A DNA stretch of 64,000 nucleotides, from positions 2,238,501-2,302,500 of the forward strand of contig JAJNNQ010000142.1 of the NCBI GenBank assembly GCA_027886175.1. Direction: 5' to 3'. The stretch is from Phylloscopus collybita (Eukaryota > Chordata > Aves > Passeriformes > Phylloscopidae). The notes beneath the pieces are model-generated. The model had not been told where the DNA came from. It ran no database searches and was given only the letters and a program-made list of their open reading frames with translations. Position numbers and translations under genes: made by a program. This document shows positions 26,571-62,997 of the stretch, in pieces; position 1 is the first letter of the stretch, and each line of letters begins with the position of its first letter.

Positions 26571-26576
26571 ACGTAG
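26571..26576. repeat. Target-site duplication, right (ACGTAG)
   Basis: Exact copy of 26,197-26,202. Satellite resumes at once with GATGTATAATTTGG in the correct monomer phase. The two copies are still identical, which argues against a very old insertion, although six bases carry little weight. Confidence 0.93.
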
Positions 26577-27065: not shown

Positions 27066-28749
27066 GAAGATGTCTCTCACGTGCAATCTACCACCAAATG
27101 GAAGTTTGTCTCCCCCTGTAGAGCCAAAGGCTTCCTACAAATTGACATCAAGAAGCTGGGGTGGAGTCTTTGGTTTCCCATGGCAAAGGGCCACGGTTCC
27201 TGTCTAATGCTGTCTGCCTGCCACTGGGCTTATGCCTACTAAAATTACATACAAATGAGGATATCTCCCAGATGCAATATGCCACCAGTTGGAAGTTTGT
27301 CTCCTCTTGTAGTGCCAGAGACCTCCTAGAAAATGACATCAGGAACCTGGGGTGGAGACTTTGGTTTCCCATGGAAATGGGCCACTATTCATGTCTAATT
27401 CTGTCTGCCTGCCGCTGGGATTCTGCCTACTAAAATTCCTCTAAAATTCCATACAAATGCGAATATCTCCCAGGTGCAAACTAACACCAGATGGAAGTTT
27501 CTCTGCCCTTATGTTTCCAAAGGCCTCCTACAAACTGCCATCAGAAACCTAGGGTGGAGACTTTGGTTTCCCATGGAAAAGGACCACCGTTCCTGTCTAA
27601 TGCTGTCTGCCTGGCACTGTGGTTATGACTGCTGAAGTTCCATACAAATGAGGATATCTCCCAGATGCAATATGCCACCAGATGGAAGTTTGTCTGCTCT
27701 TGCAGTGCCAAAGGCCTCCTTTATACTGACATTCGGAACCTGGCGTGGAGACTTTGGTTTCCTATGGAAAAGGCCCACCGTTCATGTTTAATGCTCTCTG
27801 TCTGCAACTGGGCTTCTGAGTACTAAAATACCACTAAAATTCCATACAAATAAGGACATCTACGAGGTGCGATCCACCACGAGATGGAGGTTTGTCTGCC
27901 CTTGGAGTGCCAAAGGCCTCCTACAAACTGACAGCAGGAGCCTGGGTTGGAGACTTTGTTTTCCCATGGAAAAGGGCCACCGTTCGTGTCTAATGCTGTC
28001 TGCCTGCCACTGGGCTTCTATCTGCTGAAATTCCATACAAATGTGGATATCTTCCCGATGCAATCAACCACCAGACGGAAGTTTTTCTGCCCTTGTACTG
28101 TCAATGGCCTACTAAAACCTGACATCGGGAACGTGGTGTGGAGACTTTGGTTTCCCTAGGAAAAGGACCACCGTTCCTGTCTAATGCTGTCTGCCTGTCA
28201 CTGTGGTTATGACTGCTGAAGGTCCATACAAATGAGGATATCTCCCAGGAGCAATCTACCACCAGGTGGAAGTTTGTCTACCCTTGTACTGCCGAAGGCC
28301 TCCTAGTAACGGACATCAGGAACGTGGGGTGGAGACTTTGGTTTCCCATAAAAATGGGCCACCGTTCGTGTCTAAAGCTGTCTGCCTGCCACTGGGGATC
28401 TTCGTAATAAAATTCCAATAAAATTCCAGAGAAATGAGGATATCTCCCAGGTGCAATCTACCACCAGATGGAAGTTTGTCTGCCCTTGTAGTTCCAAACG
28501 CCTTCTATAAATTGACATCAGGAACGTGGGGTGGAGACTTTGTTTTCCCATGGAAATGGGCCACCGTTTGTGTCTAATGCTATGTGACTGCCACTGGGAT
28601 TATGCCTAGTAAAATCCCGTACAAATGAGGATATCTCCCAGATAGAGTCTACCACCAGATGAAAGTTTGTCTGCCCTTGTAATGCCAAAGGCCTCCTACA
28701 CACTGACATCAGGATTCTGGAAAGGAGGCTTTGGTTTCCCATGGAAAAG

Positions 28750-28853
28750 GGCCACCGTTCCTCTCTAATGTTGTCTGCCTGCCACTGGGCTTCTACCTGA
28801 TGAAATTCCATAAAAATGAGGATATCTCAACGATGCAATCAACCACCAGACAA
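28750..28853 (+). repeat. 101-bp templated insertion in H1
   Basis: H2, H3 and H4 read ATGGAAAAGGGGCACCCTTG without interruption. In H1 a segment starting GCCACCGTTCCTCTC and ending ATCAACCACCAGACA is inserted there. The inserted segment copies the sequence about 290 bp downstream (about 29,042-29,142), including its private GTTCCTCTCTAATGTTG and GATATCTCAACGATGC. The net gain is 101 bp, about half a monomer, so this insertion is out of monomer register. Confidence 0.88.
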
Positions 28854-31800
28854 CACCCTTGTTGTTTAATGCTGTCTCCTTGCCACTGGGCTTATGACTA
28901 CTGAAATTACATACAAATGAGGATATCTCCCTAACAAAATTTCCCACCAGATGGAAGTTTGTCTGCCCTTTTAATGCCAAAGGCCTACTAAAAACTGACA
29001 TCAGGAGCCTGGTTGGAGACTTTGTTTTCCCATGGAAAAGGGCCACCGTTCCTCTCTAATGTTGTCTGCCTGCCACTGGGCTTCTACCTGATGAAATTCC
29101 ATAAAAATGAGGATATCTCAACGATGCAATCAACCACCAGACGGAAGTTTGTCTGCCCTTGTAGTGCCAAAGGCCTCCTAGAAACGGACATCAGGAACGA
29201 GGGGTGGAGACTTTGGTTTTCCATCAAATGGGCCATTGTTCGTGTCTAATGCTGTCTGCCTGCCACTGTGCTTCTTCCTACTAAAATTCCACTAAAACTC
29301 CATAGAAATGAGGATATCTCCCAGGTGCAATCTACAACCAGATGGAAGTTTCTCTACCCTTATATTGGAAAACGCCTCCTACAAAGTGACATCAGCAACA
29401 TGGGGTGGAGATTTTGGTTTCCCATGGAAAAGGGCCACTGTTCGTGTGTAATGCTGTCTGCCAGATACTGGGCTTATGCCTACTAAAATTCCACTAAAAT
29501 TCCATACAAATGAGGATACCTCCCAGGTGCAATCTACCACCAGATGGAAGTTTGTCTGCCCTTGTAGTGTTAAAGGCTTCCTACAAATTAACTTCAGGAA
29601 CCTGGGGCGTAGACTTTGGTTTCCCATGGAAAAGGGCCACCGTTCGTGTCTAATGCTGTCTGCCTGGCACTGTGGTTATGACTGCTGCAGTTCCATACAA
29701 ATGCTGATAAGTCCCAGGTGCAATCTACCACCAGGTGGAAGTTTGTCTGCCCTTGAAGTGCCAAAGGCCTCCTAAAAATTGACATCAGGAACGTGTGGTG
29801 GAGACTTTGTTTTCCCATGGAAATGGGCCACCATTTTTGTCTAATGCTATGTGCCTGCCACTGGGCGTATGCCTAGTAAAATTCCATAAAAATGAGGATA
29901 TCTCCCAGATGGAGTCTACCACCAGATGAAAGTTTGTCTGCCCTTGTAATGCAACGGCCTCCGACAAACTGATATCAGGAACCTGGAGAAGACGCTTTGG
30001 TTTCCCATGGAAAAGGGCCACCCTTGGTGTTTAATGCTGTCTCCTTGCCATTGACTTATGACTACTGAAATTACATACAAATGAGGATATCTCCCAGACG
30101 CAATATGCCACCAGATGGAAATTTGTCTGCTCTTGCAGTGCCAAAGGCCTCCTTCAAACTGACATTCGGAACCTCACCTGGAGACTTTGGTTTCCTATAG
30201 AAAAGGCCCACCATTCATGTTTAATGCTGACCGTCTGCCATTGGGCTTCTGAGTACTAAAATACCACTAAAATTCCATAAAAATGAGGATATCTCCCAGG
30301 TGCAATCTACCACCAGGTGGAAGTTTGTCAGCCCTTGCAGTGCCAAAAGCCTCCTAAAAACTGACATCAGGAACATAGGATGGATAATTTGTTTTTCCAT
30401 GGAAAGGGGCCACTGTTCGTGTCTAATGCTGTCTGCCTGCCAGTGGGCAGAAGCCTACCAAAATTCCCTACAAATGAGGATATCTCCCAAATGCAATTTC
30501 CCACCAGATGGAAGTTTGTCTGCCCTTTTTATGCCAAAGGCCTCCTACAAACTGACATCAGGAGCCTGGGTTGGAGACTTTGTTTTCCCATGGAAAAGGG
30601 CCACCGTTCGTGTCTAATGCTGTCTGCCTGCCACTGGGCTTTTACCTGCTGAAATTCCATACAAATGAGGATATCTCCCCGATACAATCAGCCACCAGAC
30701 GGAAGTTTGTTTGCCCTTGTACTGCCAAAGGCCTCCTAAAACCTGACATCAGGAACGTGGCTTGGAGACTTTGGCTGCCCATGGGAAAAGGGCCACCGTT
30801 CATGTCTAATGCTGTCTGCCTGCCACTGGGCTTCTACCTGCTGAAGTTCCATACAAATGAGGATATCTCTCCGATGCAATCAACCACCAGACGGAAGTTT
30901 GTCTACCTTTGTAGTGTCAAAGGCCTCCTAGAAACGGACATCAGGAACGTGGGGTGGAGACTTTGGTTTCCCATAAAAATGGGCCATTGTTCGTGTCTAA
31001 TGCTGTCTGCCTGCCACTATGCTTCTTCCTACTAAAATTCCACTAAAACTCCATAGAAATGAGGATATCTCCCAGGTGCAATCTACAACCAGATGGAAGT
31101 TTCTCTGCCCTTATATTGGAAAACGCCTCCTACAAAGTGACATCAGCAACATGGGGTGGAGATTTTGGTTTCCCATGGAAAAGGGCCACTGTTCGTGTCT
31201 AATGCTGTCTGCCTGCCACTGGAGTTATGCCTACTGAAATTCCTCACAAATGAGGATATTTCCCAGATGGAATCTCCCACCAGTTGGAAGTCTGTTTGCC
31301 CTTCTAGTGCCAAAGGCCTCCTAAAAACTGACATCAGGAACCTGGGGTGGAGACTTTGGTTTCTCATGGAAATGGGCCACCGTTCGTGTCTAATAATGTC
31401 TGTCGGCCATTGGGCTTCTACCTACGAAAATTCCACTGAAATTCCATACAAATGAAGACATCTCCCGGGTGCAGTCTACCGCCAGATATAAGTGTTTCTG
31501 CCCTTGTATTTCCAAAGGCCTTCTATAAACTGACATGAGGAGCCTGGAGTGGACACTTTGGTTTCCCATGGATATGGGCCAGGGTTCGTGTGTAAAGCAG
31601 TCTGCCTGCTGCTGGATTTCTACCTACTTTAATACCACTGAAATTCCATAAAAATGAGGATATCTCCCAGGTGCAATCTACCACCAGATGGAAGTTTTTC
31701 TGCCCTTGTACTTCCAAAGGCCTCTTACAAACTAATATCAGGAACGTGGGGTAGAGACTTCGGTTTCCCATGGAAAAGGACCACCGTTTGTATCTAATGC

Positions 31801-31880
31801 TGTCTGCCTGCCACTGGGGTTATGCCTGCTGAAATTCCTCACAAATGAGGATATCTCCCGCATGGAATCTACCACCAGTT

Positions 31881-32081
31881 GGAAGTTTATCTGCCCTTGT
31901 AGTGCCAAAGGCCTCCTACAAACTGACATCAGGCACGTGAGATGGAGACTTTGGTTTCCCAAGGAAATGGACCACAGTTCGTGTCTAATGCTGTCTGCGA
32001 GACACTGGGCTTATGCCGACTAAAATTCCACTAAAATTCTATACAAATGAGGATGTCTCCCAGGTGCAATCTACCACCAGA
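31881..32081 (+). repeat. Extra 201-bp monomer kept only in H1
   Basis: The H1 to H2 offset changes from 7,632 to 7,431 here. H2, H3 and H4 instead have a hybrid monomer (about 39,500-39,510 in H2) whose left part matches the H1 monomer before this one and whose right part matches the one after. It is joined inside AATCTACCACCAG. H1 therefore shows the ancestral state and the other copies share a deletion. Confidence 0.88.
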
Positions 32082-35000
32082 TGGAAGTTTGTCTGCCCCT
32101 GAAGAGCCAAAGGCTTCCTACAAATTGACATCAAGAACCTGAGGCGGAGACTTTGGTTTCCCATGGAAAAGGGACACCGTTCGCGTCTAATACTGTCTGC
32201 CTGCCACTGGGCTTATGGCTATTAAAATTACATACAAATGAGGATATCTCCTAGATGCAATATGCCACCAATAGGAACTTTTTCTCCTCCTGTAGTGCCA
32301 GAGGCCTCCTAGAAAATGACATGAGGAACCTGGGGTGGAGACTTTGGTTTCCCATGGAAATGAGCCACTATTCATGTTGAATTCTGTCTACCTGCAGCTG
32401 GGATTCTGTCTACTAATATTCCGCTAAAATTCCATACAAATGAGTATATCTCCCAGGTGCAATCTAACACCAGATGGAAGATTCTCTGCCCTTGTGTTTC
32501 CAAAGGCCTCCTACAAACTGCCATCAGGAACCTGGGGTGGAGACTTTGCTTTCCCATGGAAAAGGACCACCGTTCCTGTCTAATGCTGTCTGCCTGGCAC
32601 TGTGGTGATGACTGCTGAAGTTCCATACAAATGAGGATATCTCCCAGGTGTAATCTACCACTGGGTGGAAGTTTTTCTGCCCCCGTAGTGCCAAAGGGCT
32701 CCTAAAAACTGACATCCCGAACGGGGGGTGGAGACTTTTGTTTCCCAAAGAAATGCCCACCGTTCGTGTCTAATGCTGTCTGGCAGCCACTGGCCTTATG
32801 CCTACTAAAATTCCACTAAAATTCTATAGAAATGAGGTTATCTCCCAGGTGCAATCTACCACCAGATGGAAGTTTGCCTGCCCTTGTATTTCCAAAGGCC
32901 TCCTACAAACTGACATCAGGAACGTGAGGTGGAGACTTTGGTTTCCCATGGAAAAGGTCCATTGTTCGTGTCTAATGCTGTCTGCCTACCACTGGGCTTC
33001 TGCCTGCTGAAATTCCATACAAATGAGGGTATCTCCTCGATTCAATCAAACACAAGACGGAACTTTGTCTGCCCTTGTAGTGCCAAAGGCCTCCTACAAA
33101 ATGACACCCGGAACCCGGAGTGGAGGCTTTGGTTTCCCATAGAAATGGGCCACTGTTCGTGTCTAATGCTGTCTGCCTGCCACTGGGTTTCTTCCTACTA
33201 AAATTCCACTAAAATTCCATAGAAATGAGGATATCTCCCAGGTGCAATCTACAACCAGATGGAAGTTTTTCTGCCCTTATATTGGAAAACGCCTCCTACA
33301 ATGAGACATCAGCAACGTGGGGTGGAGATTTTGGTTTCCCATGGAAATGGGCCACTCTTCGTGTCCAATGCTGTCTGCGTGCCACTTGGCTTCTGCCTTC
33401 TGAAATCCCATACAAATGAGCATATCTCGCCGATGCAATCAACCACCAGATGAAAGTTTGTCTGCCCTTTTAATGCCAAAGGCCTCCTACAAACTGACAT
33501 GAGGAGCCTGGGTTGGAGACTTTGGTTTCCCATGGATATTGGCCAGCGTTCGTGTGTAATGCTGTCTGCCTGCCGCTGGACTTCTGCCTACTAAAATACC
33601 ACTAAAATTCCATACAAATGGCGATATCTCCCAGGTCCAATCTACCACCAGATGGAAATTTTTCTGCCCTTGTAGTTCCATTCGCCTCTTAATGACTGAC
33701 ATCAGGAACGTGGGATGGAGACTTTGGTTTCCCATGGAAAAGGGCACCGTTCGTGTCTAATGCTATCTGCCTGCCACTGGGGTTATGCCTTCTGAAATTC
33801 CTCACAAATGAGGATATCTCCCAGGTGCAATCTACCACCAGATGGAAGTTTGTCTGCCCTTGTAGTTCCAAAGCCCTCCTACAAACTGACATCAGGAACG
33901 TGAGGTGGAGACTTTGGTTTCCCATGGAAAAGGTCCATTGTTCGTGTCTAATGCTGTCTGCCTGCCACTGGGCTTATGCCTACTAAAATTCCACTAAAAT
34001 TCTATACAAATGAGGATATCTCCCAGGTGCAATCTACCACCAGATAGAAGTTTGTCTGCCCTTGTAATTCCAAAGGCCTCCTACAAATTGTCATCAGGAA
34101 CCTGGGGCGGAGACTTTGGTTTCCCCTGGAAAAGGGCCACCGTTCGTGTCTAATGCTGTCTGCCTGCCACTGGGCTTATGGGTACTAAAATTACATACAA
34201 ATGAGGATATCTCCCAGATGCAATATGCCACCAATTGGAAGTTTGTCCCCTCTTGTAGGGCCAGAGGCCTCCTAGAAAATGACATCAGGATCATGGGTTG
34301 GAGACTTTGGTTTCCTATGGAAATGGGCCACTATTCATGTCTAATTCTGTCTACATGCTGCTGGGATTCTGCCTACTAAAATTCCACTAAAATTCCATAA
34401 AAATGAGTATATCTCCCAGCTACAACCTAACACCAGATGGAAGTTTCTCTGCCCTTGTATTTCCAAAGGCCTCCTACAAACTGCCATCAGGAACCTAGGG
34501 TGGAGACTTTGGTTTCCCATGGAAAAGGTCCATTGTTCGTGTCTAATGCTGTCTGCCTGCCACTGGGCTTCTGCCTGCTGAAATTCCATACAAATGAGGA
34601 TATCTCCTCGATGCAATCAACCACCAGATGGAACTTTGTCTGCTCTTGTAGTGCCAAAGGCCTCCTACAAACTCACATCAGGAACCTGGAGTGGAGACTT
34701 TGGTTTCCCATGGAAATGGGCCAGCGTTCGTGTCTAATGATGTGTGCCTGCCACGAGGCTTCTGCCTATTAAAATTCCACTAAAATTCCATACAAATGAG
34801 GATGTCTCCCATGTGCAATCTACCACCAGATGGAAGTTTGTCTGCCCCTGTAGAGCCAAAGGCTTCCTACAAATTGACATCAGGAACCTGGGGCGGAGAC
34901 TTTGGTTTCCCATTGAAAAGGACCACCGCTCCTGTCTAATGCTGTCTGCCTGCCACTGGGCTTATGCCTACTAAAATTACATACAAATGAGGATATCTCC

Positions 35001-38000
35001 CAGATGCAATATGCCACCAGTTGGAAGTTTGTCTCGTCTTGTAGTGCCAGAGGCCTCCTAGAAAATGACATCAGGAACCTGGGGTGGAGACTTTGGTTTC
35101 CCATGGAAATGGGCCACTATTCATGTCTAATTCTGTCTGCCTGCCGCTGGGATTCTGCCTACTAAAATTCCTCTAAAATTCCATACAAATGCGAATATCT
35201 CCCAGGTGCAAACTAACACCAGATGGAAGTTTCTCTGCCCTTATGTTTCCAAAGGCCTCCTACAAACTGCCATCAGAAACCTAGGGTGGAGACTTTGGTT
35301 TCCCATGGAAAAGGACCACCGTTCCTGTCTAATGCTGTCTGCCTGGCACTGTGGTTATGACTGCTGAAGTTCCATACAAATGAGGATATCTCCCAGATGC
35401 AATATGCCACCAGATGGAAGTTTGTCTGCTCTTGCAGTGCCAAAGGCCTCCTTTATACTGACATTCGGAACCTGGCGTGGAGACTTTGGTTTCCTATGGA
35501 AAAGGCCCACCGTTCATGTTTAATGCTCTCTGTCTGCAACTGGGCTTCTGAGTACTAAAATACCACTAAAATTCCATGCAAATAAGGACATCTACGAGGT
35601 GCGATCCACCACTAGATGGAGGTTTGTCTGCCCTTGTAGTGCCAAAGGCCTCCTACAAACTGACATCAGGAGCCTGGGTTGGAGACTTTGGTTTTCCCAT
35701 GGAAAAGGGCCACCGTTCGTGTCTAATGCTGTCTGCCTGCCACTGGGCTTCTATCTGCTGAAATTCCATACAAATGAGGATATCTTCCCGATGCAATCAA
35801 CCACCAGACGGAAGTTTTTCTGCCCTTGTACTGTCAATGGCCTACTAAAACCTGACATCGGGAACGTGGTGTGGAGACTTTGGTTTCCCTAGGAAAAGGA
35901 CCACCGTTCCTGTCTAATGCTGTCTGCCTGGCACTGTGTTTATGACTGCTGAAGGTCCATACAAATGAGGATATCTCCCAGGAGCAATCTACCACCAGGT
36001 GGAAGTTTGTCTACCCTTGTACTGCCGAAGGCCTCCTAGTAACGGACATCAGGAACGTGGGGTGGAGACTTTGGTTTCCCATAAAAATGGGCCACCGTTC
36101 GTGTCTAAAGCTGTCTGCCTGCCACTGGGGATCTTCGTAATAAAATTCCAATAAAATTCCAGAGAAATGAGGATATCTCCCAGGTGCAATCTACCACCAG
36201 ATGGAAGTTTTTCTGCCCTTGTAGTTCCAAACGCCTTCTATAAATTGACATCAGGAACGTGGGGTGGAGACTTTGTTTTCCCATGGAAATGGGCCACCGT
36301 TTGTGTCTAATGCTATGTGACTGCCACTGGGATTATGCCTAGTAAAATCCCGTACAAATGAGGATATCTCCCAGATAGAGTCTACCACCAGATGAAAGTT
36401 TGTCTGCCCTTGTAATGCCAAAGGCCTCCTACAAACTGACATCAGGATTCTGGAAAGGAGGTTTTGGTTTCTCATGGAAAAGGGGCACCCTTGTTGTTTA
36501 ATGCTGTCTCCTTGCCACTGGGCTTATGACTACTGAAATTACATACAAATGAGGATATCTCCCTAACAAAATTTCCCACCAGATGGAAGTTTGTCTGCCC
36601 TTTTAATGCCAAAGGCCTACTAAAAACTGACATCAGGAGCCTGGTTGGAGACTTTGTTTTCCCATGGAAAAGGGCCACCGTTCCTCTCTAATGTTGTCTG
36701 CCTGCCACTGGGCTTCTACCTGATGAAATTCCATAAAAATGAGGATATCTCAACGATGCAATCAACCACCAGACGGAAGTTTGTCTGCCCTTGTAGTGCC
36801 AAAGGCCTCCTAGAAACGGACATCAGGAACGAGGGGTGGAGACTTTGGTTTTCCATCAAATGGGCCATTGTTCGTGTCTAATGCTGTCTGCCTGCCACTA
36901 TGCTTCTTCCTACTAAAATTCCACTAAAACTCCATAGAAATGAGGATATCTCCCAGGTGCAATCTACAACCAGATGGAAGTTTCTCTACCCTTATATTGG
37001 AAAACGCCTCCTACAAAGTGACATCAGCAACATGGGGTGGAGATTTTGGTTTCCCATGGAAAAGGGCCACTGTTCGTGTGTAATGCTGTCTGCCAGATAC
37101 TGGGCTTATGCCTACTAAAATTCCACTAAAATTCCATACAAATGAGGATACCTCCCAGGTGCAATCTACCACCAGATGGAAGTTTGTCTGCCCTTGTAGT
37201 GTTAAAGGCTTCCTACAAATTAACTTCAGGAACCTGGGGCGTAGACTTTGGTTTCCCATGGAAAAGGGCCACCGTTCGTGTCTAATGCTGTCTGCCTGGC
37301 ACTGTGGTTATGACTGCTGCAGTTCCATACAAATGCTGATAAGTCCCAGGTGCAATCTACCACCAGGTGGAAGTTTGTCTGCCCTTGAAGTGCCAAAGGC
37401 CTCCTAAAAATTGACATCAGGAACGTGTGGTGGAGACTTTGTTTTCCCATGGAAATGGGTCACCCTTTTTGTCTAATGCTATGTGCCTGCCACTGGGCGT
37501 ATGCCTAGTAAAATTCCATAAAAATGAGGATATCTCCCAGATGGAGTCTACCACCAGATGAAAGTTTGTCTGCCCTTGTAATGCAACGGCCTCCGACAAA
37601 CTGATATCAGGAACCTGGAGAGGACGCTTTGGTTTCCCATGGAAAAGGGCCACCCTTGGTGTTTAATGCTGTCTCCTTGCCACTGACTTATGACTACTGA
37701 AATTACATACAAATGAGGATATCTCCCAGACGCAATATGCCACCAGATGGAAATTTGTCTGCTCTTGCAGTGCCAAAGGCCTCCTTCAAACTGACATTCG
37801 GAACCTCACCTGGAGACTTTGGTTTCCTATAGAAAAGGCCCACCGTTCATGTTTAATGCTGTCTGTCTGCCATTGGGCTTCTGAGTACTAAAATACCACT
37901 AAAATTCCATAAAAATGAGGATATCTCCCAGGTGCAATCTACCACCAGGTGGAAGTTTGTCAGCCCTTGCAGTGCCAAAAGCCTCCTAAAAACTGACATC

Positions 38001-41000: not shown

Positions 41001-41546
41001 CTGCCGCTGGACTTCTGCCTACTAAAATACCACTAAAATTCCATACAAATGGCGATATCTCCCAGGTCCAATCTACCACCAGATGGAAATTTTTCTGCCC
41101 TTGTAGTTCCATTCGCCTCTTAATGACTGACATCAGGAACGTGGGATGGAGACTTTGGTTTCCCATGGAAAAGGGCACCGTTCGTGTCTAATGCTATCTG
41201 CCTGCCACTGGGGTTATGCCTTCTGAAATTCCACACAAATGAGGATATCTCCCAGGTGCAATCTACCACCAGATGGAAGTTTGTCTGCCCTTGTAGTTCC
41301 AAAGCCCTCCTACAAACTGACATCAGGAACGTGAGGTGGAGACTTTGGTTTCCCATGGAAAAGGTCCATTGTTCGTGTCTAATGCTGTCTGCCTGCCACT
41401 GGGCTTATGCCTACTAAAATTCCACTAAAATTCTATACAAATGAGGATATCTCCCAGGTGCAATCTACCACCAGATAGAAGTTTGTCTGCCCTTGTAATT
41501 CCAAAGGCCTCCTACAAATTGTCATCAGGAACCTGGGGCGGAGACT

Positions 41547-44690: not shown

Positions 44691-45374
44691 TTGGTTTCCC
44701 CTGGAAAAGGGCCACCGTTCGTGTCTAATGCTGTCTGCCTGCCACTGGGCTTATGGGTACTAAAATTACATACAAATGAGGATATCTCCCAGATGCAATA
44801 TGCCACCAATTGGAAGTTTGTCCCCTCTTGTAGGGCCAGAGGCCTCCTAGAAAATGACATCAGGATCATGGGTTGGAGACTTTGGTTTCCTATGGAAATG
44901 GGCCACTATTCATGTCTAATTCTGTCTACATGCTGCTGGGATTCTGCCTACTAAAATTCCACTAAAATTCCATAAAAATGAGTATATCTCCCAGCTACAA
45001 CCTAACACCAGATGGAAGTTTCTCTGCCCTTGTATTTCCAAAGGCCTCCTACAAACTGCCATCAGGAACCTAGGGTGGAGACTTTGGTTTTCCCATGGAA
45101 AAGGTCCATTGTTCGTGTCTAATGCTGTCTGCCTGCCACTGGGCTTCTGCCTGCTGAAATTCCATACAAATGAGGATATCTCCTCGATGCAATCAACCAC
45201 CAGATGGAACTTTGTCTGCTCTTGTAGTGCCAAAGGCCCTCCTACAAACTCACATCAGGAACCTGGAGTGGAGACTTTGGTTTCCCATGGAAATGGGCCA
45301 GCGTTCGTGTCTAATGATGTGTGCCTGCCACGAGGCTTCTGCCTATTAAAATTCCACTAAAATTCCATACAAAT

Positions 45375-51300: not shown

Positions 51301-54300
51301 CGCCTCCTACAATGAGACATCAGCAACGTGGGGTGGAGATTTTGGTTTCCCATGGAAATGGGCCACTGTTCGTGTCCAATGCTGTCTGCGTGCCACTTGG
51401 CTTCTGCCTTCTGAAATCCCATACAAATGAGCATATCTCGCCGATGCAATCAACCACCAGATGGAAGTTTGTCTGCCCTTTTAATGCCAAAGGCCTCCTA
51501 CAAACTGACATGAGGAGCCTGGGTTGGAGACTTTGGTTTCCCATGGATATTGGCCAGCGTTCGTGTGTAATGCTGTCTGCCTGCCGCTGGACTTCTGCCT
51601 ACTAAAATACCACTAAAATTCCATACAAATGGCGATATCTCCCAGGTCCAATCTACCACCAGATGGAAATTTTTCTGCCCTTGTAGTTCCATTCGCCTCT
51701 TAATGACTGACATCAGGAAAGTGGGATGGAGACTTTGGTTTCCCATGGAAAAGGGCACAGTTCGTGTCTAATGCTATCTGCCTGCCACTGGGGTTATGCC
51801 TTCTGAAATTCCACACAAATGAGGATATCTCCCAGGTGCAATCTACCACCAGATGGAAGTTTGTCTGCCCTTGTAGTTCCAAAGCCCTCCTACAAACTGA
51901 CATCAGGAACGTGAGGTGGAGACTTTGGTTTCCCATGGAAAAGGTCCATTGTTCGTGTCTAATGCTGTCTGCCTGCCACTGGGCTTATGCCTACTAAAAT
52001 TCCACTAAAATTCTATACAAATGAGGATATCTCCCAGGTGCAATCTACCACCAGATAGAAGTTTGTCTGCCCTTGTAATTCCAAAGGCCTCCTACAAATT
52101 GTCATCAGGAACCTGGGGCGGAGACTTTGGTTTCCCATGGAAAAGGGCCACCGTTCGTGTCTCATTCTGTCTGCCTGCCACTGGTCTTATGGGTACTAAA
52201 ATTACATACAAATGAGGATATCTCCCAGATGCAATATGCCACCAATTGGAAGTTTGTCCCCTCTTGTAGTGCCAGAGGCCTCCTAGAAAATGACATCAGA
52301 ATCATGGGTTGGAGACTTTGGTTTCCTATGGAAATGGGCCACTATTCATGTCTAATTCTGTCTACATGCTGCTGGGATTCTGCCTACTAAAATTCCACTA
52401 AAATTCCATAAAAATGTGTATATCTCCCAGCTACAACCTAACACCAGATGGAAGTTTCTCTGCCCTTGTATTTCCAAAGGCCTCCTACAAACTGCCATCA
52501 GGAACCTAGGGTGGAGACTTTGGTTTCCCATGGAAAAGGTCCATTGTGCGTGTCTAATGCTGTCTGCCTGGCACTGGGCTTCTGCCTGCTGAAATTCCAT
52601 ACAAATGAGGATATCTCCTCGATGCAATCAACCACCAGATGGAACTTTGTCTGCTCTTGTAGTGCCAAAGGCCTCCTACAAACTCACATCAGGAACCTGG
52701 AGTGGAGACTTTGGTTTCCCATGGAAATGGGCCAGCGTTCGTGTCTAATGACTTGCGTCTGCCACTAGGCTTCTGCCTAATAAAATCCCACTAAAATTCC
52801 ATACAAATGAGGATGTCTCCCAGGTGCAATCTAACACCAGATGGAAGTTTGTCTGCCTCTGTAGTGCCAAATGCCTCCTAAAAATTGACGTCAGGAACGT
52901 GGGGTGGAGACTTTGGTTTCCCATGGAAAAGGGGCACCGTTCGTGTCTAATGCTGTCTGCCTGTCACTGGTGTTATGCCTGCTGAAATACCTCACAAATG
53001 AGGATATCTCCCAGATGCAATATGCCAGCAGTTGGAAGTTTGTCTCCTCCTGTAGTGCCAGAGGTCTCCTAAAAACTGACATCAGGAACGTGGGGTGGAG
53101 ACTTTGTTTTTCCATGGATAGAGGCCACCGTTCGTGTCTAATGCTGTCTGCCTGCCAGTGGGCATATGCCTACCAAAGTTCCATACATATGAGGATATCT
53201 CCCAAATGCAATTTCCCACCAGATGAAAGTTTGTCTGCCCTTTTAATGCCAAAGGCCTCCTACAAACTGACATGAGGAGCCTGGGTTGGAGACTTTGGTT
53301 TCCCATGGATATTGGCCAGCGTTCGTGTGTAATGCTGTCTGCCTGCCGCTGGACTTCTGCCTACTAAAATTCCACTAAAATTCTATACAAATGAGGATAT
53401 CTCCCAGGTGCAATCTACCACCAGATGGAAGTTTGTCTGCCCTTGTAGTTCCAAAGCCCTCCTACAAACTGACATCAGGAACGTGAGGTGGAGACTTTGG
53501 TTTCCCATGGAAAAGGTCCATTGTTCATGTCTAATGCTGTCTGCCTGCCACTGGGCTTATGCCTACTAAAATTCCACTAAAATTCTATACAAATGAGGAT
53601 ATCTCCCAGGTGCAATCTACCACCAGATAGAAGTTTGTCTGCCCTTGTAATTCCAAAGGCCTCCTACAAATTGTCATCAGGAACCTGGGGCGGAGACTTT
53701 GGTTTCCCCTGGAAAAGGGCCACCGTTCGTGTCTAATGCTGTCTGCCTGCCACTGGGCTTATGGGTACTAAAATTACATACAAATGAGGATATCTCCCAG
53801 ATGCAATATGCCACCAATTGGAAGTTTGTCCCCTCTTGTAGGGCCAGAGGCCTCCTAGAAAATGACATCAGGATCATGGGTTGGAGACTTTGGTTTCCTA
53901 TGGAAATGGGCCACTATTCATGTCTAATTCTGTCTACATGCTGCTGGGATTCTGCCTACTAAAATTCCACTAAAATTCCATAAAAATGAGTATATCTCCC
54001 AGCTACAACCTAACACCAGATGGAAGTTTCTCTGCCCTTGTATTTCCAAAGGCCTCCTACAAACTGCCATCAGGAACCTAGGGTGGAGACTTTGGTTTCC
54101 CATGGAAAAGGTCCATTGTTCGTGTCTAATGCTGTCTGCCTGCCACTGGGCTTCTGCCTGCTGAAATTCCATACAAATGAGGATATCTCCTCGATGCAAT
54201 CAACCACCAGATGGAACTTTGTCTGCTCTTGTAGTGCCAAAGGCCTCCTACAAACTCACATCAGGAACCTGGAGTGGAGACTTTGGTTTCCCATGGAAAT

Positions 54301-54380
54301 GGGCCAGCGTTCGTGTCTAATGATGTGTGCCTGCCACGAGGCTTCTGCCTATTAAAATTCCACTAAAATTCCATACAAAT
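45375..54380 (+). repeat. Large HOR copy H3, 9,006 bp (n = 1)
   Basis: From 45,375 to the same landmark at 54,381. It contains one extra 1,572-bp sub-block (52,127 to 53,699) and three single-base insertions relative to H4 (near 47,251, 48,656 and 49,599). The offset to H4 steps down 9,006, 9,005, 9,004, 9,003 across them. 7,431 + 1,572 + 3 = 9,006 exactly. It shares with H4 the GTTTCTTCC and AACGTCTCC variants near 47,480-47,590. Confidence 0.94.
52127..53698 (+). repeat. 1,572-bp sub-block, single unit in H3
   Basis: Equivalent of the first H2 unit, followed at 53,699 by the monomer type that in H2 ends the expansion. H3 therefore has one unit where H2 has two. Confidence 0.92.
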
Positions 54381-57300
54381 GAGGATGTCTCCCATGTGCA
54401 ATCTACCACCAGATGGAAGTTTGTCTGCCCCTGTAGAGCCAAAGGCTTCCTACAAATTGACATCAGGAACCTGGGGCGGAGACTTTGGTTTCCCATTGAA
54501 AAGGACCACCGCTCCTGTCTAATGCTGTCTGCCTGCCACTGGGCTTATGCCTACTAAAATTACATACAAATGAGGATATCTCCCAGATGCAATATGCCAC
54601 CAGTTGGAAGTTTGTCTCGTCTTGTAGTGCCAGAGGCCTCCTAGAAAATGACATCAGGAACCTGGGGTGGAGACTTTGGTTTCCCATGGAAATGGGCCAC
54701 TATTCATGTCTAATTCTGTCTGCCTGCCGCTGGGATTCTGCCTACTAAAATTCCTCTAAAATTCCATACAAATGCGAATATCTCCCAGGTGCAAACTAAC
54801 ACCAGATGGAAGTTTCTCTGCCCTTATGTTTCCAAAGGCCTCCTACAAACTGCCATCAGAAACCTAGGGTGGAGACTTTGGTTTCCCATGGAAAAGGACC
54901 ACCGTTCCTGTCTAATGCTGTCTGCCTGGCACTGTGGTTATGACTGCTGAAGTTCCATACAAATGAGGATATCTCCCAGATGCAATATGCCACCAGATGG
55001 AAGTTTGTCTGCTCTTGCAGTGCCAAAGGCCTCCTTTATACTGACATTCGGAACCTGGCGTGGAGACTTTGGTTTCCTATGGAAAAGGCCCACCGTTCAT
55101 GTTTAATGCTCTCTGTCTGCAACTGGGCTTCTGAGTACTAAAATACCACTAAAATTCCATGCAAATAAGGACATCTACGAGGTGCGATCCACCACTAGAT
55201 GGAGGTTTGTCTGCCCTTGTAGTGCCAAAGGCCTCCTACAAACTGACATCAGGAGCCTGGGTTGGAGACTTTGGTTTTCCCATGGAAAAGGGCCACCGTT
55301 CGTGTCTAATGCTGTCTGCCTGCCACTGGGCTTCTATCTGCTGAAATTCCATACAAATGAGGATATCTTCCCGATGCAATCAACCACCAGACGGAAGTTT
55401 TTCTGCCCTTGTACTGTCAATGGCCTACTAAAACCTGACATCGGGAACGTGGTGTGGAGACTTTGGTTTCCCTAGGAAAAGGACCACCGTTCCTGTCTAA
55501 TGCTGTCTGCCTGGCACTGTGTTTATGACTGCTGAAGGTCCATACAAATGAGGATATCTCCCAGGAGCAATCTACCACCAGGTGGAAGTTTGTCTACCCT
55601 TGTACTGCCGAAGGCCTCCTAGTAACGGACATCAGGAACGTGGGGTGGAGACTTTGGTTTCCCATAAAAATGGGCCACCGTTCGTGTCTAAAGCTGTCTG
55701 CCTGCCACTGGGGATCTTCGTAATAAAATTCCAATAAAATTCCAGAGAAATGAGGATATCTCCCAGGTGCAATCTACCACCAGATGGAAGTTTGTCTGCC
55801 CTTGTAGTTCCAAACGCCTTCTATAAATTGACATCAGGAACGTGGGGTGGAGACTTTGTTTTCCCATGGAAATGGGCCACCGTTTGTGTCTAATGCTATG
55901 TGACTGCCACTGGGATTATGCCTAGTAAAATCCCGTACAAATGAGGATATCTCCCAGATAGAGTCTACCACCAGATGAAAGTTTGTCTGCCCTTGTAATG
56001 CCAAAGGCCTCCTACAAACTGACATCAGGATTCTGGAAAGGAGGTTTTGGTTTCTCATGGAAAAGGGGCACCCTTGTTGTTTAATGCTGTCTCCTTGCCA
56101 CTGGGCTTATGACTACTGAAATTACATACAAATGAGGATATCTCCCTAACAAAATTTCCCACCAGATGGAAGTTTGTCTGCCCTTTTAATGCCAAAGGCC
56201 TACTAAAAACTGACATCAGGAGCCTGGTTGGAGACTTTGTTTTCCCATGGAAAAGGGCCACCGTTCCTCTCTAATGCTGTCTGCCTGCCACTGGGCTTCT
56301 ACCTGATGAAATTCCATAAAAATGAGGATATCTCAACGATGCAATCAACCACCAGACGGAAGTTTGTCTGCCCTTGTAGTGCCAAAGGCCTCCTAGAAAC
56401 GGACATCAGGAACGAGGGGTGGAGACTTTGGTTTTCCATCAAATGGGCCATTTTTCTTGTCTAATGCTGTCTGCCTGCCACGGGGTTTCTTCCTACTAAA
56501 ATTCCACTAAAACTCCATAAAAATGAGGATACCTCCCAGGTGCAATCTACAACCAGATGGAAGTTTCTCTGCCCTTATATTGGAAAACGTCTCCTACAAA
56601 GTGACATCAGCAACATGGGGTGGAGATTTTGGTTTCCCATGGAAAAGGGCCACTGTTCGTGTGTAATGCTGTCTGCCAGATACTGGGCTTATGCCTACTA
56701 AAATTCCACTAAAATTCCATACAAATGAGGATACCTCCCAGGTGCAATCTACCACCAGATGGAAGTTTGTCTGCCCTTGTAGTGTTAAAGGCTTCCTACA
56801 AATTAACATCAGGAACCTGGGGCGTAGACTTTGGTTTCCCATGGAAAAGGGCCACCGTTCGTGTCTAATGCTGTCTGCCTGGCACTGTGGTTATGACTGC
56901 TGCAGTTCCATACAAATGCTGATAAGTCCCAGGTGCAATCTACCACCAGGTGGAAGTTTGTCTGCCCTTGAAGTGCCAAAGGCCTCCTAAAAATTGACAT
57001 CAGGAACGTGTGGTGGAGACTTTGTTTTCCCATGGAAATGGGTCACCCTTTTTGTCTAATGCTATGTGCCTGCCACTGGGCTTATGCCTAGTAAAATTCC
57101 ATAAAAATGAGGATATCTCCCAGATGGAGTCTACCACCAGATGAAAGTTTGTCTGCCCTTGTAATGCAACGGCCTCCGACAAACTGACATCAGGAACCTG
57201 GAGAAGACGCTTTGGTTTCCCATGGAAAAGGGCCACCCTTGGTGTTTAATGCTGTCTCCTTGCCACTGACTTATGACTACTGAAATTACATACAAATGAG

Positions 57301-60300
57301 GATATCTCCCAGACGCAATATGCCACCAGATGGAAATTTGTCTGCTCTTGCAGTGCCAAAGGCCTCCTTCAAACTGACATTCGGAACCTCACCTGGAGAC
57401 TTTGGTTTCCTATAGAAAAGGCCCACCATTCATGTTTAATGCTGTCTGTCTGCCATTGGGCTTCTGAGTACTAAAATACCACTAAAATTCCATAAAAATG
57501 AGGATATCTCCCAGGTGCAATCTACCACCAGGTGGAAGTTTGTCAGCCCTTGCAGTGCCAAAAGCCTCCTAAAAACTGACATCAGGAACATAGGATGGAT
57601 AATTTGTTTTTCCATGGAAAGGGGCCACTGTTTGTGTCTAATGCTGTCTGCCTGCCAGTGGGCAGAAGCCTACCAAAATTCCCTACAAATGAGGATATCT
57701 CCCAAATGCAATTTCCCACCAGATGGAAGTTTGTCTGCCCTTTTTATGCCAAAGGCCTCCTACAAACTGACATCAGGAGCCTGGGTTGGAGACTTTGTTT
57801 TCCCATGGAAAAGGGCCACCGTTCGTGTCTAATGCTGTCTGCCTGCCACTGGGCTTTTACCTGCTGAAATTCCATACAAATGAGGATATCTCCCCGATGC
57901 AATCAGCCACCAGACGGAAGTTTGTTTGCCCTTGTACTGCCAAAGGCCTCCTAAAACCTGACATCAGGAACGTGGCTTGGAGACTTTGGCTGCCCATGGG
58001 AAAAGGGCCACCGTTCATGTCTAATGCTGTCTGCCTGCCACTGGGCTTCTACCTGCTGAAGTTCCATACAAATGAGGATATCTCCCCGATGCAATCAACC
58101 ACCAGACGGAAGTTTGTCTACCTTTGTAGTGTCAAAGGCCTCCTAGAAACGGACATCAGGAACGTGGGGTGGAGACTTTGGTTTCCCATAAAAATGGGCC
58201 ATTATTCGTGTCTAATGCTGTCTGCCTGCCACTCTGCTTCTTCCTACTAAAATTCCACTAAAACTCCATAGAAATGAGGATATCTCCCAGGTGCAATCTA
58301 CAACCAGATGGAAGTTTCTCTGCCCTTATATTGGAAAACGCCTCCTACAAAGTGACAGCAGCAACATGGGGTGGAGATTTTGGTTTCCCATGGAAAAGGG
58401 CCACTGTTCGTGTCTAATGCTGTCTGCCTGCCACTGGAGTTATGCCTACTGAAATTCCTCACAAATGAGGATATTTCCCAGATGGAATCTCCCACCAGTT
58501 GGAAGTTTGTTTGCCCTTCTAGTGCCAAAGGCCTCCTAAAAACTGACATCAGGAACCTGGGCTGGAGACTTTGGTTTCTCATGGAAATGGGCCACCGTTC
58601 GTGTCTAATAATGTCTGTCGGCCATTGGGCTTCTACCTACGAAAATTCCACTGAAATTCCATACAAATGAAGACATCTCCCGGGTGCAGTCTACCGCCAG
58701 ATATAAGTTTTTCTGCCCTTGTATTTCCAAAGGCCTTCTATAAACTGACATGAGGAGCCTGGAGTGGACACTTTGGTTTCCCATGGATATGGGGCAGCGT
58801 TCGTGTGTAAAGCAGTCTGCCTGCTGCTGGATTTCTGCCTACTTTAATACCACTGAAATTCCACAAAAATGAGGATATCTCCCAGGTGCAATCTACCACC
58901 AGATGGAAGTTTTTCTGCCCTTGTACTTCCAAAGGCCTCTTACAAACTAATATCAGGAACGTGGGGTAGAGACTTCGGTTTCCCATGGAAAAGGACCACC
59001 GTTTGTGTCTAATACTGTCTGCCTGCCACTGGGGTTATGCCTGCTGAAATTCCTCACAAATGAGGATATCTCCCGCACGGAATCTACCACCAGATGGAAG
59101 TTTGTCTGCCCCTGAAGAGCCAAAGGCTTCCTACAAATTGACATCAAGAACCTGAGGCGGAGACTTTGGTTTCCCATGGAAAAATGGCCAACTTTCGCGT
59201 CTAATACTGTCTGCCTGCCACTGGGCTTATGGCTATTAAAATTACATACAAATGAGGATATCTCCTAGATGCAATATGCCACCAATAGGAACTTTTTCTC
59301 CTCCTGTAGTGCCAGAGGCCTCCTAGAAAATGACATGAGGAATCTGGGGTGGAGACTTTGGTTTCCCATGGAAATGAGCCACTATTCATGTCTAATTCTG
59401 TCTACCTGCAGCTGGGATTCTGTCTACTAATATTCCACTAAAATTTCATACAAATGAGTATATCTCCCAGGTGCAATCTAACACCAGATGGAAGATTCTC
59501 TGCCCTTGTGTTTCCAAAGGCCTCCTACAAACTGCCATCAGGAACCTGGGGTGGAGACTTTGCTTTCCCATGGAAAAGGACCACCGTTCCTGTCTAATGC
59601 TGTCTGCCTGGCACTGTGGTGATGACTGCTGAAGTTCCATACAAATGAGGATATCTCCCAGGTGTAATCTACCACTGGGTGGAAGTTTTTCTGCCCCCGT
59701 AGTGCCAAAGGCCACCTAAAAACTGACATCCCGAACGGGGGGTGGAGACTTTTGTTTCCCAAAGAAATGCCCACCGTTCGTGTCTAATGCTGTCTGGCAG
59801 CCACTGGCCTTATGCCTACTAAAATTCCACTAAAATTCTATAGAAATGAGGTTATCTCCCAGGTGCAATCTACCACCAGATGGAAGTTTGCCTGCCCTTG
59901 TATTTCCAAAGGCCTCCTACAAACTGACATCAGGAACGTGAGGTGGAGACTTTGGTTTCCCATGGAAAAAGTCCATTGTTCGTGTCTAATGCTGTCTGCC
60001 TGCCACTGGGCTTCTGCCTGCTGAAATTCCATACAAATGAGGGTATCTCCTCGATTCAATCAAACACAAGACGGAACTTTGTTTGCCCTTGTAGTGCCAA
60101 AGGCCTCCTACAAAATGACACCCGGAACCCGGAGTGGAGACTTTGTTTTTCCATGGAAAGAGGCCACCGTTCGTGTCTAATGCTGTCTGCCTGCCACTGG
60201 GTTTCTTCCTACTAAAATTCCACTAAAATTCCATAGAAATGAGGATATCTCCCAGGTGCAATCTACAACCAGATGGAAGTTTTTCTGCCCTTATATTGGA

Positions 60301-62788
60301 AAACGCCTCCTACAATGAGACATCAGCAACGTGGGGTGGAGATTTTGGTTTCCCATGGAAATGGGCCACTCTTCGTGTCCAATGCTGTCTGCGTGCCACT
60401 TGGCTTCTGCCTTCTGAAATCCCATACAAATGAGCATATCTCGCCGATGCAATCAACCACCAGATGGAAGTTTGTCTGCCCTTTTAATGCCAAAGGCCTC
60501 CTACAAACTGACATGAGGAGCCTGGGTTGGAGACTTTGGTTTCCCATGGATATTGGCCAGCGTTCGTGTGTAATGCTGTCTGCCTGCCGCTGGACTTCTG
60601 CCTACTAAAATACCACTAAAATTCCATACAAATGGCGATATCTCCCAGGTCCAATCTACCACCAGATGGAAATTTTTCTGCCCTTGTAGTTCCATTCGCC
60701 TCTTAATGACTGACATCAGGAACGTGGGATGGAGACTTTGGTTTCCCATGGAAAAGGGCACCGTTCGTGTCTAATGCTATCTGCCTGCCACTGGGGTTAT
60801 GCCTTCTGAAATTCCACACAAATGAGGATATCTCCCAGGTGCAATCTACCACCAGATGGAAGTTTGTCTGCCCTTGTAGTTCCAAAGCCCTCCTACAAAC
60901 TGACATCAGGAACGTGAGGTGGAGACTTTGGTTTCCCATGGAAAAGGTCCATTGTTCGTGTCTAATGCTGTCTGCCTGCCACTGGGCTTATGCCTACTAA
61001 AATTCCACTAAAATTCTATACAAATGAGGATATCTCCCAGGTGCAATCTACCACCAGATAGAAGTTTGTCTGCCCTTGTAATTCCAAAGGCCTCCTACAA
61101 ATTGTCATCAGGAACCTGGGGCGGAGACTTTGGTTTCCCATGGAAAAGGGCCACCGTTCGTGTCTCATTCTGTCTGCCTGCCACTGGTCTTATGGGTACT
61201 AAAATTACATACAAATGAGGATATCTCCCAGATGCAATATGCCACCAATTGGAAGTTTGTCGCCTCTTGTAGTGCCAGAGGCCTCCTAGAAAATGACATC
61301 AGGATCATGGGTTGGAGACTTTGGTTTCCTATGGAAATGAGCCACTATTCATGTCTAATTCTGTCTACATGCTGCTGGGATTCTGCCTACTAAAATTCCA
61401 CTAAAATTCCATAAAAATGAGTATATCTCCCAGCTACAACCTAACACCAGATGGAAGTTTCTCTGCCCTTGTATTTCCAAAGGCCTCCTACAAACTGCCA
61501 TCAGGAACCTAGGGTGGAGACTTTGGTTTCCTATGGAAAAGGTCCATTGTGCGTGTCTAATGCTGTCTGCCTGCCACTGGGCTTCTGCCTGCTGAAATTC
61601 CATACAAATGAGGATATCTCCTCGATGCAATCAACCACCAGATGGAACTTTGTCTGCTCTTGTAGTGCCAAAGGCCTCCTACAAACTGACATCAGGAACC
61701 TGGAGTGGAGACTTTGGTTTCCCATGGAAATGGGCCAGCGTTCGTGTCTAATGACTTGCGTCTGCCACTAGGCTTCTGCCTAATAAAATCCCACTAAAAT
61801 TCCATACAAATGAGGATGTCTCCCAGGTGCAATCTACCACCAGATGGAAGTTTGTCTGCCTCTGTAGTGCCAAATGCCTCCTAAAAACTGACGTCAGGAA
61901 CGTGGGGTGGAGACTTTGGTTTCCCATGGAAAAGGGGCACCGTTCGTGTCTAATGCTGTCTGCCTGTCACTGGTGTTATGCCTGCTGAAATACCTCACAA
62001 ATGAGGATATCTCCCAGATGCAATATGCCAGCAGTTGGAAGTTTGTCTCCTCCTGTAGTGCCAGAGGTCTCCTAAAAACTGACATCAGGAACGTGGGGTG
62101 GAGACTTTGTTTTTCCATGGATAGAGGCCACCGTTCGTGTCTAATGCTGTCTGCCTGCCAGTGGGCATATGCCTACCAAAGTTCCATACATATGAGGATA
62201 TCTCCCAAATGCAATTTCCCACCAGATGAAAGTTTGTCTGCCCTTTTAATGCCAAAGGCCTCCTACAAACTGACATGAGGAGCCTGGGTTGGAGACTTTG
62301 GTTTCCCATGGATATTGGCCAGCGTTCGTGTGTAATGCTGTCTGCCTGCCGCTGGACTTCTGCCTACTAAAATTCCACTAAAATTCTATACAAATGAGGA
62401 TATCTCCCAGGTGCAATCTACCACCAGATGGAAGTTTGTCTGCCCTTGTAGTTCCAAAGGCCTCCTACAAACTGACATCAGGAACGTGAGGTGGAGACTT
62501 TGGTTTCCCATGGAAAAGGTCCATTGTTCATGTCTAATGCTGTCTGCGTGCCACTGGGCTTCTGCCTGCTGAAATTCCATACAAATGAGGATATCTCCTC
62601 GATGCAATCAACCACCAGACGGAACTTTGTCTGCCCTTCTAGTGCCAAACGCCTCCTTCAAACTGACATCAGTATCCTGGATTGGAAACTTTGGTTTCCC
62701 ATGGAAATGGGCCAGCGTTCGTGTCTAATGATGTGTGCCTGCCACGAGGCTTCTGCCTATTGAAATTCCACTAAAATTCCATACAAAT
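54381..62788 (+). repeat. Large HOR copy H4, 8,408 bp (n = 1 with a three-monomer deletion)
   Basis: Follows H3 at an offset of 9,003 to about 62,560. The offset then changes to about 8,408, meaning a loss of 595 bp, which equals one 191-bp and two 202-bp monomers. 7,431 + 1,572 - 595 = 8,408 exactly. It ends at GAGGATGTCTCCCAGGTG (62,789), the landmark that would begin the next copy, but the sequence then jumps to other parts of the array. The last monomers are more diverged than the equivalent ones in H3. Confidence 0.92.
61130..62560 (+). repeat. 1,572-bp sub-block in H4, truncated
   Basis: Same start type as 41,547 and 52,127. It follows the block until about 62,560, where CCACTGGGCTT runs into CTGCCTGCTGAAATTCC, so the last part and the following monomers are deleted (595 bp in total). 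Confidence 0.85.
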
Positions 62789-62997
62789 GAGGATGTCTCC
62801 CAGGTGCAATCTACCACCAGGTGGAAGTTTGTCAGCCCTTGCAGTGCCAAAAGCCTCCTAAAAACTGACATCAGGAACATAGGATGGATAATTTGTTTTT
62901 CCATGGAAAGGGGCCACTGTTCGTGTCTAATGCTGTCTGCCTGCCAGTGGGCAGAAGCCTACCAAAATTCCCTACAAATGAGGATATCTCCCAAATG
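62560..62997 (+). repeat. Mosaic junction of three array segments
   Basis: Three changes of partner lie within about 440 bp. Near 62,560 H4 jumps ahead by three monomers. At 62,801-62,820 (CAGGTGCAATCTACCACCAG) it switches to the sequence found at about 30,300 in H1. At 62,970-62,997 (CCCTACAAATGAGGATATCTCCCAAATG region) it switches to the sequence found at 22,024. All joins keep monomer phase. Confidence 0.85.

What the first reader, a model, noticed from the sequence alone, without database searches (positions are those of the whole stretch)
27066..62788. Nested HOR: one 7,431-bp base unit plus n copies of a 1,572-bp block
The four HOR copies differ in length by more than 2.8 kb, yet each decomposes exactly: 7,732 = 7,431 + 101 + 201 - 1; 10,577 = 7,431 + 2 x 1,572 + 2; 9,006 = 7,431 + 1,572 + 3; 8,408 = 7,431 + 1,572 - 595. 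Every correction corresponds to a located event. A variable-number tandem block of eight monomers inside a roughly 38-monomer HOR is a clear case of a repeat within a repeat within a repeat, and would be a natural length polymorphism between haplotypes.
Basis: seen in the sequence. Interest (0 to 1): 0.78.

Follow-up and report, generated by a model that had tools for sequence, protein, structure and literature searches.

The report
Nested satellite repeat inside larger repeat
This stretch of a large, possibly bird, genome is satellite DNA whose 8-10 kb repeats really do differ by a fixed internal module, and the neighbouring sequence shows that the whole group of four copies is itself one copy of a still larger repeat, tens of kilobases long.

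Summary
In detail: the four copies measure 7,732, 10,577, 9,006 and 8,408 bp, and alignment finds the claimed events. The interpretation changes. (1) 7,431 bp is bookkeeping: none of 12 decoded copies has it. The copy read as "truncated by 595" (43 monomers) is a complete unit: its module ends in a distinct monomer, K5, found after 10 of 15 module runs (five arrays, two contigs). The 1,572-bp block occurs after 4 of 15, only in middle copies. (2) Three chimeric monomers, each with one breakpoint, show in-register loss of whole monomers. (3) The four copies plus a 5-kb flank form one 40,946-bp super-unit; 200 kb of adjoining genome shows it recurring, shorter or cut off. Five flanks differ at 1-12 of 4,650 bp and carry the same solo-LTR-like element and target duplication. 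First and last copies match their counterparts in other super-units (0.06-0.28%) better than S1's first copy matches any other HOR (0.9-1.1%); module state at both ends is fixed (4 of 4). Organism unidentified. Local-nested HORs and superHORs are described in human centromeres: a new variant of a known kind. Polymorphism and assembly correctness are untested.

The parts
1..16167 (-). Minus-strand satellite array with its own HOR of 17-18 monomers (three copies of 3,495, 3,497 and 3,316 bp, then 3,773 bp to the window's left end)
16175..26806 (+). Divergent satellite of the opposite orientation; from about 22,024 on it is the flank part of the super-unit
22024..62969 (+). Super-unit S1, 40,946 bp: flank + four HOR copies; the next super-unit begins at 62,970
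26203..26570 (.). 368-bp solo-LTR-like element (TG...CA), 6-bp target duplication at 26197-26202 and 26571-26576; same element and duplication in other copies of the flank
27200..34729 (+).
28752..28852 (+). Approximate place of the 101-bp extra piece; 28,740-28,851 matches 29,031-29,142 of the same copy exactly
31790..32182 (+). Monomers X1 and X2, fused into the single monomer B25 in copies 2-4
34730..45306 (+).
42161..43732 (+). 1,572-bp block: K1-K4 + T1-T4
43733..45306 (+). 1,572-bp block, second copy (1,574 bp: two 1-bp insertions)
45307..54312 (+).
54313..62720 (+).
61744..62720 (+). Five-monomer module K1-K5, 977 bp, also found in related arrays
62970..64000 (+). Start of super-unit S2: copy of 22,024-23,054, 3 mismatches in 1,031 bp

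Best explanation
This is vertebrate-like (possibly avian, possibly centromeric or pericentromeric) satellite DNA with at least four nested repeat levels: 191/202-bp monomers in a partly alternating two-class order; a five-monomer module (K1-K5, 977 bp) or an eight-monomer derivative (1,572 bp); HOR units of 38-54 monomers; and a super-unit of about 21-41 kb made of an LTR-tagged flank, a module-free first HOR, zero or two middle HORs and a 43-monomer last HOR. Shown: the structure, the chimeric monomers, and the greater similarity between same-position copies of different super-units. Inferred: in-register unequal homologous exchange between similar monomers adds or deletes modules, and occasional exchange at the flank duplicates the whole super-unit. 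No coding function is proposed; its likely role is as substrate of centromeric or pericentromeric chromatin (inferred, untested).
For: Lengths and gaps. Super-unit series in the plus-strand array at 22-156 kb, decoded from the window plus 200 kb of contig C144. Five 4,650-bp flank copies differ at 1-12 sites, no gaps; four first HORs differ at 10-21 of about 7,530; four last HORs at 5-14 of 8,217; the S1 first HOR differs from eight other base regions at 58-73 of 6,441. Same LTR and same target duplication at 7 plus-strand places, 0-1 mismatch, plus one less complete match on the minus strand. One-breakpoint chimeras (sites matching parent a: parent b): B25=X1|X2, left 24:1, right 0:16, 8 sites matching neither; B1=K1|B1 in a neighbouring array, left 9:0, right 0:14, 1 neither; T1=T1|T3, left 13:0, right 1:12. 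K5 after 10 of 15 K runs.
Against: The assembly was not checked against reads. Few super-units: flank-to-flank distances of 40,946, 37,399 and 27,887 bp (the last includes a cut-off copy) and one of 7,276 bp that is a cut-off copy; the fourth last HOR is followed by other satellite, not by a flank. None of the six 10-kb pieces fetched elsewhere (L029-L034) contains the LTR, and the flank-like sequence 350 kb away on C144 is only about 81% similar, so the super-unit is shown in one 264-kb stretch only. The direction of module change in the main array is only partly resolved: the n=0 tail shares its states with the post-block tail, with one clearly derived shared site (T2 column 113). The first base that I read as K5-derived at the K4-T1 junction also occurs in one T1 that follows B34, on C36. 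The centromere role is untested.
Confidence: 0.83

Rival explanations
1. One reading: a 7,431-bp base HOR with n copies of a 1,572-bp block varying independently as a VNTR; the last copy is a truncated n=1.
For: The arithmetic is exact for all four copies, and copy 2 carries two adjacent blocks.
Against: K5, which in this model would be a damaged T4, is a distinct monomer: 0-7 edits among ten copies in five arrays on two contigs, 11-15 edits from T4. First and last copies have fixed states in 4 of 4 super-units. The eight-monomer block appears 4 times in what was decoded, each time in a middle copy.
Confidence: 0.08
2. Assembly artefact: expansion or misjoining of near-identical satellite reads produced the super-units or the block number differences.
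For: Same-position copies are 99.7-99.9% alike, the kind of region where assemblers err; no reads were available.
Against: Super-units differ by several substitutions each; chimeric junctions lie at different places; related modules with the K4-K5 junction occur on contig C36 and 350 kb away on C144.
Confidence: 0.1
3. The module-free state is primary and K1-K5 was inserted once later, then spread.
For: Module-free copies occur in two arrays; in the main array the T4 of the module-free copy is not a T4/K5 hybrid.
Against: In the array at 232-264 kb the module-free junction is a K1|B1 chimera, direct evidence of module loss there; K1-K5 lies in five arrays.
Confidence: 0.15

Closest known systems
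Local-nested HORs (LN-HORs) of human centromeres, HiCAT paper PMC10053651 (passages seen)
   Same: A subunit of the HOR is present in variable number, e.g. 1-2-3-4-5-(6-7-8-9)xn-10-11 in CEN15; the paper also notes that deletion and amplification can give the same outcome, as here
   Different: 191/202-bp monomers instead of alpha satellite; much longer HOR (38-54 monomers); the state of the first and last copies here is fixed by position in a larger unit
superHORs as defined in CentromereArchitect, PMC8336445 (passages seen)
   Same: A recurring string of HOR types with run lengths ignored; first-(middle)-last fits this
   Different: Here the super-unit also includes about 5 kb of divergent monomers and a solo-LTR-like element
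Cascading HORs, PMC11050224 (passages seen), and the 58mer 'superHOR', PMC12428378 (abstract seen)
   Same: Monomer types occur more than once in a canonical unit, giving subfragment periods inside a long HOR
   Different: Primate alpha satellite; the abstract of the second uses superHOR for one very large unit, not for a repeat of HOR groups
Chicken CNM HORs, PMC9974502 (passages seen)
   Same: HORs in a bird; an endogenous retrovirus in one centromere core is reported there
   Different: 41-bp monomer, HOR of 26-98 copies; no nested module in the passages seen
Zebra finch 191-bp satellite (Tgut191A): recalled, comes from no call
   Same: Monomer length, as recalled
   Different: Sequence could not be compared; the one search for the name found nothing

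Membership tests
Higher-order repeat (HOR) | Multi-monomer unit repeated with far higher identity between units than between monomers | tested here: met
   98.6-99.6% between copies, about 81% between monomers of a unit
Local-nested HOR (LN-HOR) | Subunit of a HOR tandemly amplified inside the HOR | tested here: met
   1 of 12 HOR copies decoded in the main array has two adjacent 1,572-bp blocks; 2 have one, 4 have K1-K5, 5 have none
superHOR (CentromereArchitect sense) | Recurring string of HOR types, run lengths ignored | tested here: met
   flank-first-(middle)-last occurs four times; my own decoding, not the HORDecomposer program
Cascading HOR | Some monomer types occur more than once in the canonical unit | tested here: met
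   T1-T4 twice in the 46-monomer copies; near-identical monomers at positions B12 and B21 in two copies
Alpha satellite | About 171-bp monomer, often with CENP-B box (recalled) | tested here: not met
   Monomers 191/202 bp; 0 exact CENP-B box cores on either strand; no direct sequence comparison with alpha satellite was made
Zebra finch Tgut191A satellite | Sequence identity to the published monomer | not testable with these tools
   No reference sequence held; name search empty
Solo LTR of an endogenous retrovirus | TG...CA ends, short target duplication, no internal region | tested here: met
   368 bp, 6-bp duplication, empty site rejoins to a 201-bp monomer
Solo LTR of an endogenous retrovirus | Similarity to a known LTR family | not tested
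   No LTR library at hand; genome searches with the element did not complete (and repeats)
Functional centromere DNA | CENP-A enrichment | not testable with these tools
   No chromatin data

The most novel reading that the evidence does not exclude
The real unit of homogenisation here is a 21-41-kb super-HOR tagged by one old solo-LTR insertion, in which the end HORs are locked and only the middle HORs and their modules turn over: a five-tier satellite hierarchy (monomer, dimer, module, HOR, super-HOR) outside primates in which length variation is confined to the centre of each super-unit.
Probability: 0.3. Interest if true: 0.6.

Novelty: new variant of a known kind. Interest (0 to 1): 0.45.

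Why it matters
If the assembly is right, it gives a tagged record of how long satellite units grow: one LTR insertion marks the super-unit flanks, and three chimeric monomers place individual exchange events inside single monomers. It also shows that counting a variable block from one window can mislead, because the module state is partly fixed by position in a larger repeat that the window barely exposes.

Tried and rejected
Chance origin: rejected. A 595-bp deletion in copy 4: rejected after K5 was found elsewhere. My first reading, that n=0 in the main array arose by loss of the 1,572-bp block through its 786-bp direct repeats, was weakened: related arrays carry the 'derived' T1 state before the module, which leaves one supporting site; the post-block tail may instead be a copy of the n=0 tail. 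Palindrome at the orientation switch near 16,170: in 16,000-16,400 the arms are 83% alike, i.e. ordinary monomer identity. CENP-B box: no exact core. Rfam: no match at gathering scores. Prokaryote and viral contig collections: no exact match to one 23-base pattern. Varanid VSAREP satellite (passages): similar length, but average GC 57.27%, not pursued; the window is 47% GC. Paper searches for the zebra finch name, for 191-bp centromeric satellites and for bird or zebra finch HORs, for cascading HORs (29), superHOR/nested HOR (59) and LTR insertion in satellite arrays (78): in the titles and abstract openings listed I saw no description of this repeat; most listed papers were not opened, and this is no proof that it is not in print. 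Passages of PMC7713956 and PMC13320880 named no 191-bp satellite. BLAST self-comparison of the window (3 rows) and two parts returned little; I replaced them by monomer decoding. Non-satellite island at ext 213-227 kb: 5 of 11 listed ORFs of locus L024 scanned, no Pfam match.
Full report
WHAT WAS CHECKED. The window is satellite DNA from end to end except for one short insert. Tandem Repeats Finder gives a 191-bp unit over nearly all of it, with 382- and 393-bp dimer periods. Cutting the window into 331 pieces, a few of them partial monomers, shows two length classes, 191 and 202 bp, which differ by an 11-bp segment present in 38% of 322 aligned full-length monomers. Orientation flips near 16,170. 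CpG observed/expected is 0.29, as in methylated vertebrate DNA (recalled).

Their alignment shows the events claimed: 3,146 bp (two blocks), 1,572 bp (one block), 202 and 101 bp in copy 1, 595 bp between copies 3 and 4. Identity is 98.6-98.8% between copy 1 and the others and 99.2-99.6% among copies 2-4. Mean identity between monomers inside a unit is about 81%.

WHAT THE WINDOW ALONE ALREADY SHOWED. (a) Monomer B25 of copies 2-4 is a fusion of two neighbouring monomers of copy 1, X1 and X2, with one breakpoint: on the left 24 sites match X1 only and 1 matches X2 only, on the right 0 and 16; 8 sites match neither. The '201-bp insertion' of copy 1 is thus the older state. (b) The 101-bp extra piece of copy 1 belongs to a 112-bp stretch (28,740-28,851) that matches 29,031-29,142 of the same copy exactly. 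(c) Copies 1 and 2 share 15 sites at alignment columns 1998-3807 that differ from copies 3 and 4. In that tract the B12 monomer of copies 1 and 2 is within 1-3 edits of the B21 monomers, while that of copies 3 and 4 is 8-9 edits away, which looks like conversion of B12 by B21. (d) The last 1,031 bases of the window (62,970-64,000) repeat 22,024-23,054 with 3 mismatches, an offset of 40,946.

THE NEIGHBOURING GENOME. The window lies at C144:2,238,501-2,302,500 of an unnamed assembly of 1,247,226,758 bases in 517 contigs. A 1.6-kb piece of the HOR base was found there on 15 contigs, at 94-100% identity in its long matches apart from a few at 79-83%; only 40 of 5,930 candidates were scored, so this is a lower bound. 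I fetched the next 200 kb and labelled each monomer by its nearest position in the canonical unit (distance at most 0.075). Coordinates below run on from the window (ext).

THE SUPER-UNIT. The plus-strand array from 22 to 156 kb reads: flank, first HOR (27,200), two middle HORs, last HOR (54,313); flank, first (68,146), two middle, last (91,716); flank, a cut-off first HOR (105,545) that jumps back into flank, first (112,069), last (119,599); flank, a cut-off first HOR (133,432), flank, first (140,708), last (148,238), then other satellite with no further flank. The same anchor monomer in successive flanks recurs after 40,946, 37,399, 27,887 and 7,276 bp; the last two distances include the cut-off copies, and the fourth super-unit with both ends runs about 20.6 kb from its anchor to the end of its last HOR. 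The five flanks compared are all 4,650 bp and differ at 1-12 sites without gaps. Four first HORs differ at 10-21 sites of about 7,530, and four last HORs at 5-14 of 8,217. The first HOR of S1 differs from eight other HOR base regions at 58-73 sites of 6,441; the first HORs of the other super-units were not compared with last ones. Same-position copies of different super-units are thus several times more alike than S1's first copy is to any middle or last copy. This is the signature of a further repeat level.

THE LTR TAG. The only non-satellite piece in the window is 368 bp at 26,203-26,570, with TG...CA ends and a 6-bp duplication on both sides. Removing it and one duplication restores a 201-bp monomer. 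In the 264 kb the same element stands at seven plus-strand places with 0 or 1 mismatch and the same 6-bp duplication; six lie in the main array and one in the array at 246 kb. A less complete match lies on the minus strand near 186.9 kb. One insertion has been multiplied with the satellite. None of the six 10-kb pieces fetched elsewhere holds it, and the flank-like stretch 350 kb away on C144 is only about 81% similar.

THE MODULE. Across the main array, two other arrays of the same 264 kb, 20 kb of C144 some 350 kb further on, 20 kb of C36 and 20 kb of C141, I found 15 runs of K1-K4 (one lacks K4); four other rows of the listing, K4-like monomers not preceded by K1-K3, are left out. Ten of the 15 are followed by a monomer, K5, whose copies are 0-7 edits apart and 11-15 edits from T4, the HOR position to which they were labelled. 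Four are followed by T1-T4 (the 1,572-bp block), all in middle copies of S1 and S2. One (C141) is followed by other sequence. The 8,408-bp 'truncated' copy is therefore B1-34, T1-4, K1-5, a complete 43-monomer unit; another of 8,407 bp lies in the C144 piece 350 kb away. Of the 12 HOR copies with the full base in the main array, five have no module (four first copies and one middle copy shortened by 393 bp), four have K1-K5 (the last copies), two have one 1,572-bp block and one has two; none is 7,431 bp long.

HOW IT CHANGES. Three chimeric monomers, each with one best breakpoint, mark losses of whole monomers: X1|X2 (202 bp), K1|B1 in the array at 232-264 kb (977 bp, the length of the module there; left 9:0, right 0:14 informative sites, 1 matching neither), and T1|T3 in a middle copy of S2 (393 bp; left 13:0, right 1:12). 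All keep monomer phase, as in-register homologous exchange would. At the K4-T1 junction of the 1,572-bp block the first base is that of K5 and the rest is T1; but one T1 that follows B34, on C36, has the same first base. Together with the matching tail states of n=0 and post-block tails, the simplest reading is that the block was made by exchange between a K5 and the T1 of an n=0 copy. That step is inferred and rests on few sites. In the main array itself the n=0 junction is not resolved.

TWO-CLASS ORDER. In the 46-monomer unit the 191/202 classes alternate at 33 of 45 steps (22.6 expected, shuffled p 0.0018); the flank (17 of 50, 17.2 expected) and the left array (34 of 81, 34.0 expected) do not. 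Leaving out the 11-bp segment, even-lag identity still exceeds odd-lag identity in the unit (3 of 2,000 shuffles reach it), marginally in the left array (90 of 2,000) and not in the flank (362 of 2,000).

COMPARISON. Variable subunits inside HORs are known as local-nested HORs in human centromeres (PMC10053651, passages), repeated strings of HORs as superHORs (PMC8336445, passages), and monomer types repeated inside a unit as cascading HORs (PMC11050224, passages; PMC12428378, abstract). HORs are reported in chicken for a 41-bp repeat (PMC9974502, passages). A 191-bp zebra finch satellite is recalled only. The kind is known; the combination of module, long HOR and an LTR-tagged super-unit with position-fixed ends is a new variant as far as these searches go.

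LIMITS. No reads, second haplotype or chromatin data were available. The organism is not identified; bird is a guess from genome size. 

Noticed in passing
window 1-16167: A separate minus-strand HOR of 17-18 monomers (about 3.5 kb; aligned copies 91-98.5% alike) that shares monomer types with the right-hand HOR
   Followed up: partly
window ~16170: Orientation of the satellite flips with no insert and no close palindrome; several more flips occur in the next 200 kb
   Followed up: partly
C144 about 2,451,800-2,465,200 (ext 213.3-226.7 kb; locus L024 lies inside): A non-satellite island of about 13 kb with inverted satellite arms on both sides (best arm pair 9.4 kb at 89.7%, reaching into the island); no Pfam match in 5 of 11 ORFs
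   Followed up: partly
ext 249-264 kb (C144 about 2,487,800-2,502,500): A related array with shortened HORs (B1-5 joined to B23-24, X1-2, B26-34) in tandem, including the K1|B1 chimera
   Followed up: partly
C141, C36 and 12 further contigs: Pieces of the same HOR base at mostly 98-100% identity on many contigs, suggesting recent exchange between chromosomes
   Followed up: no
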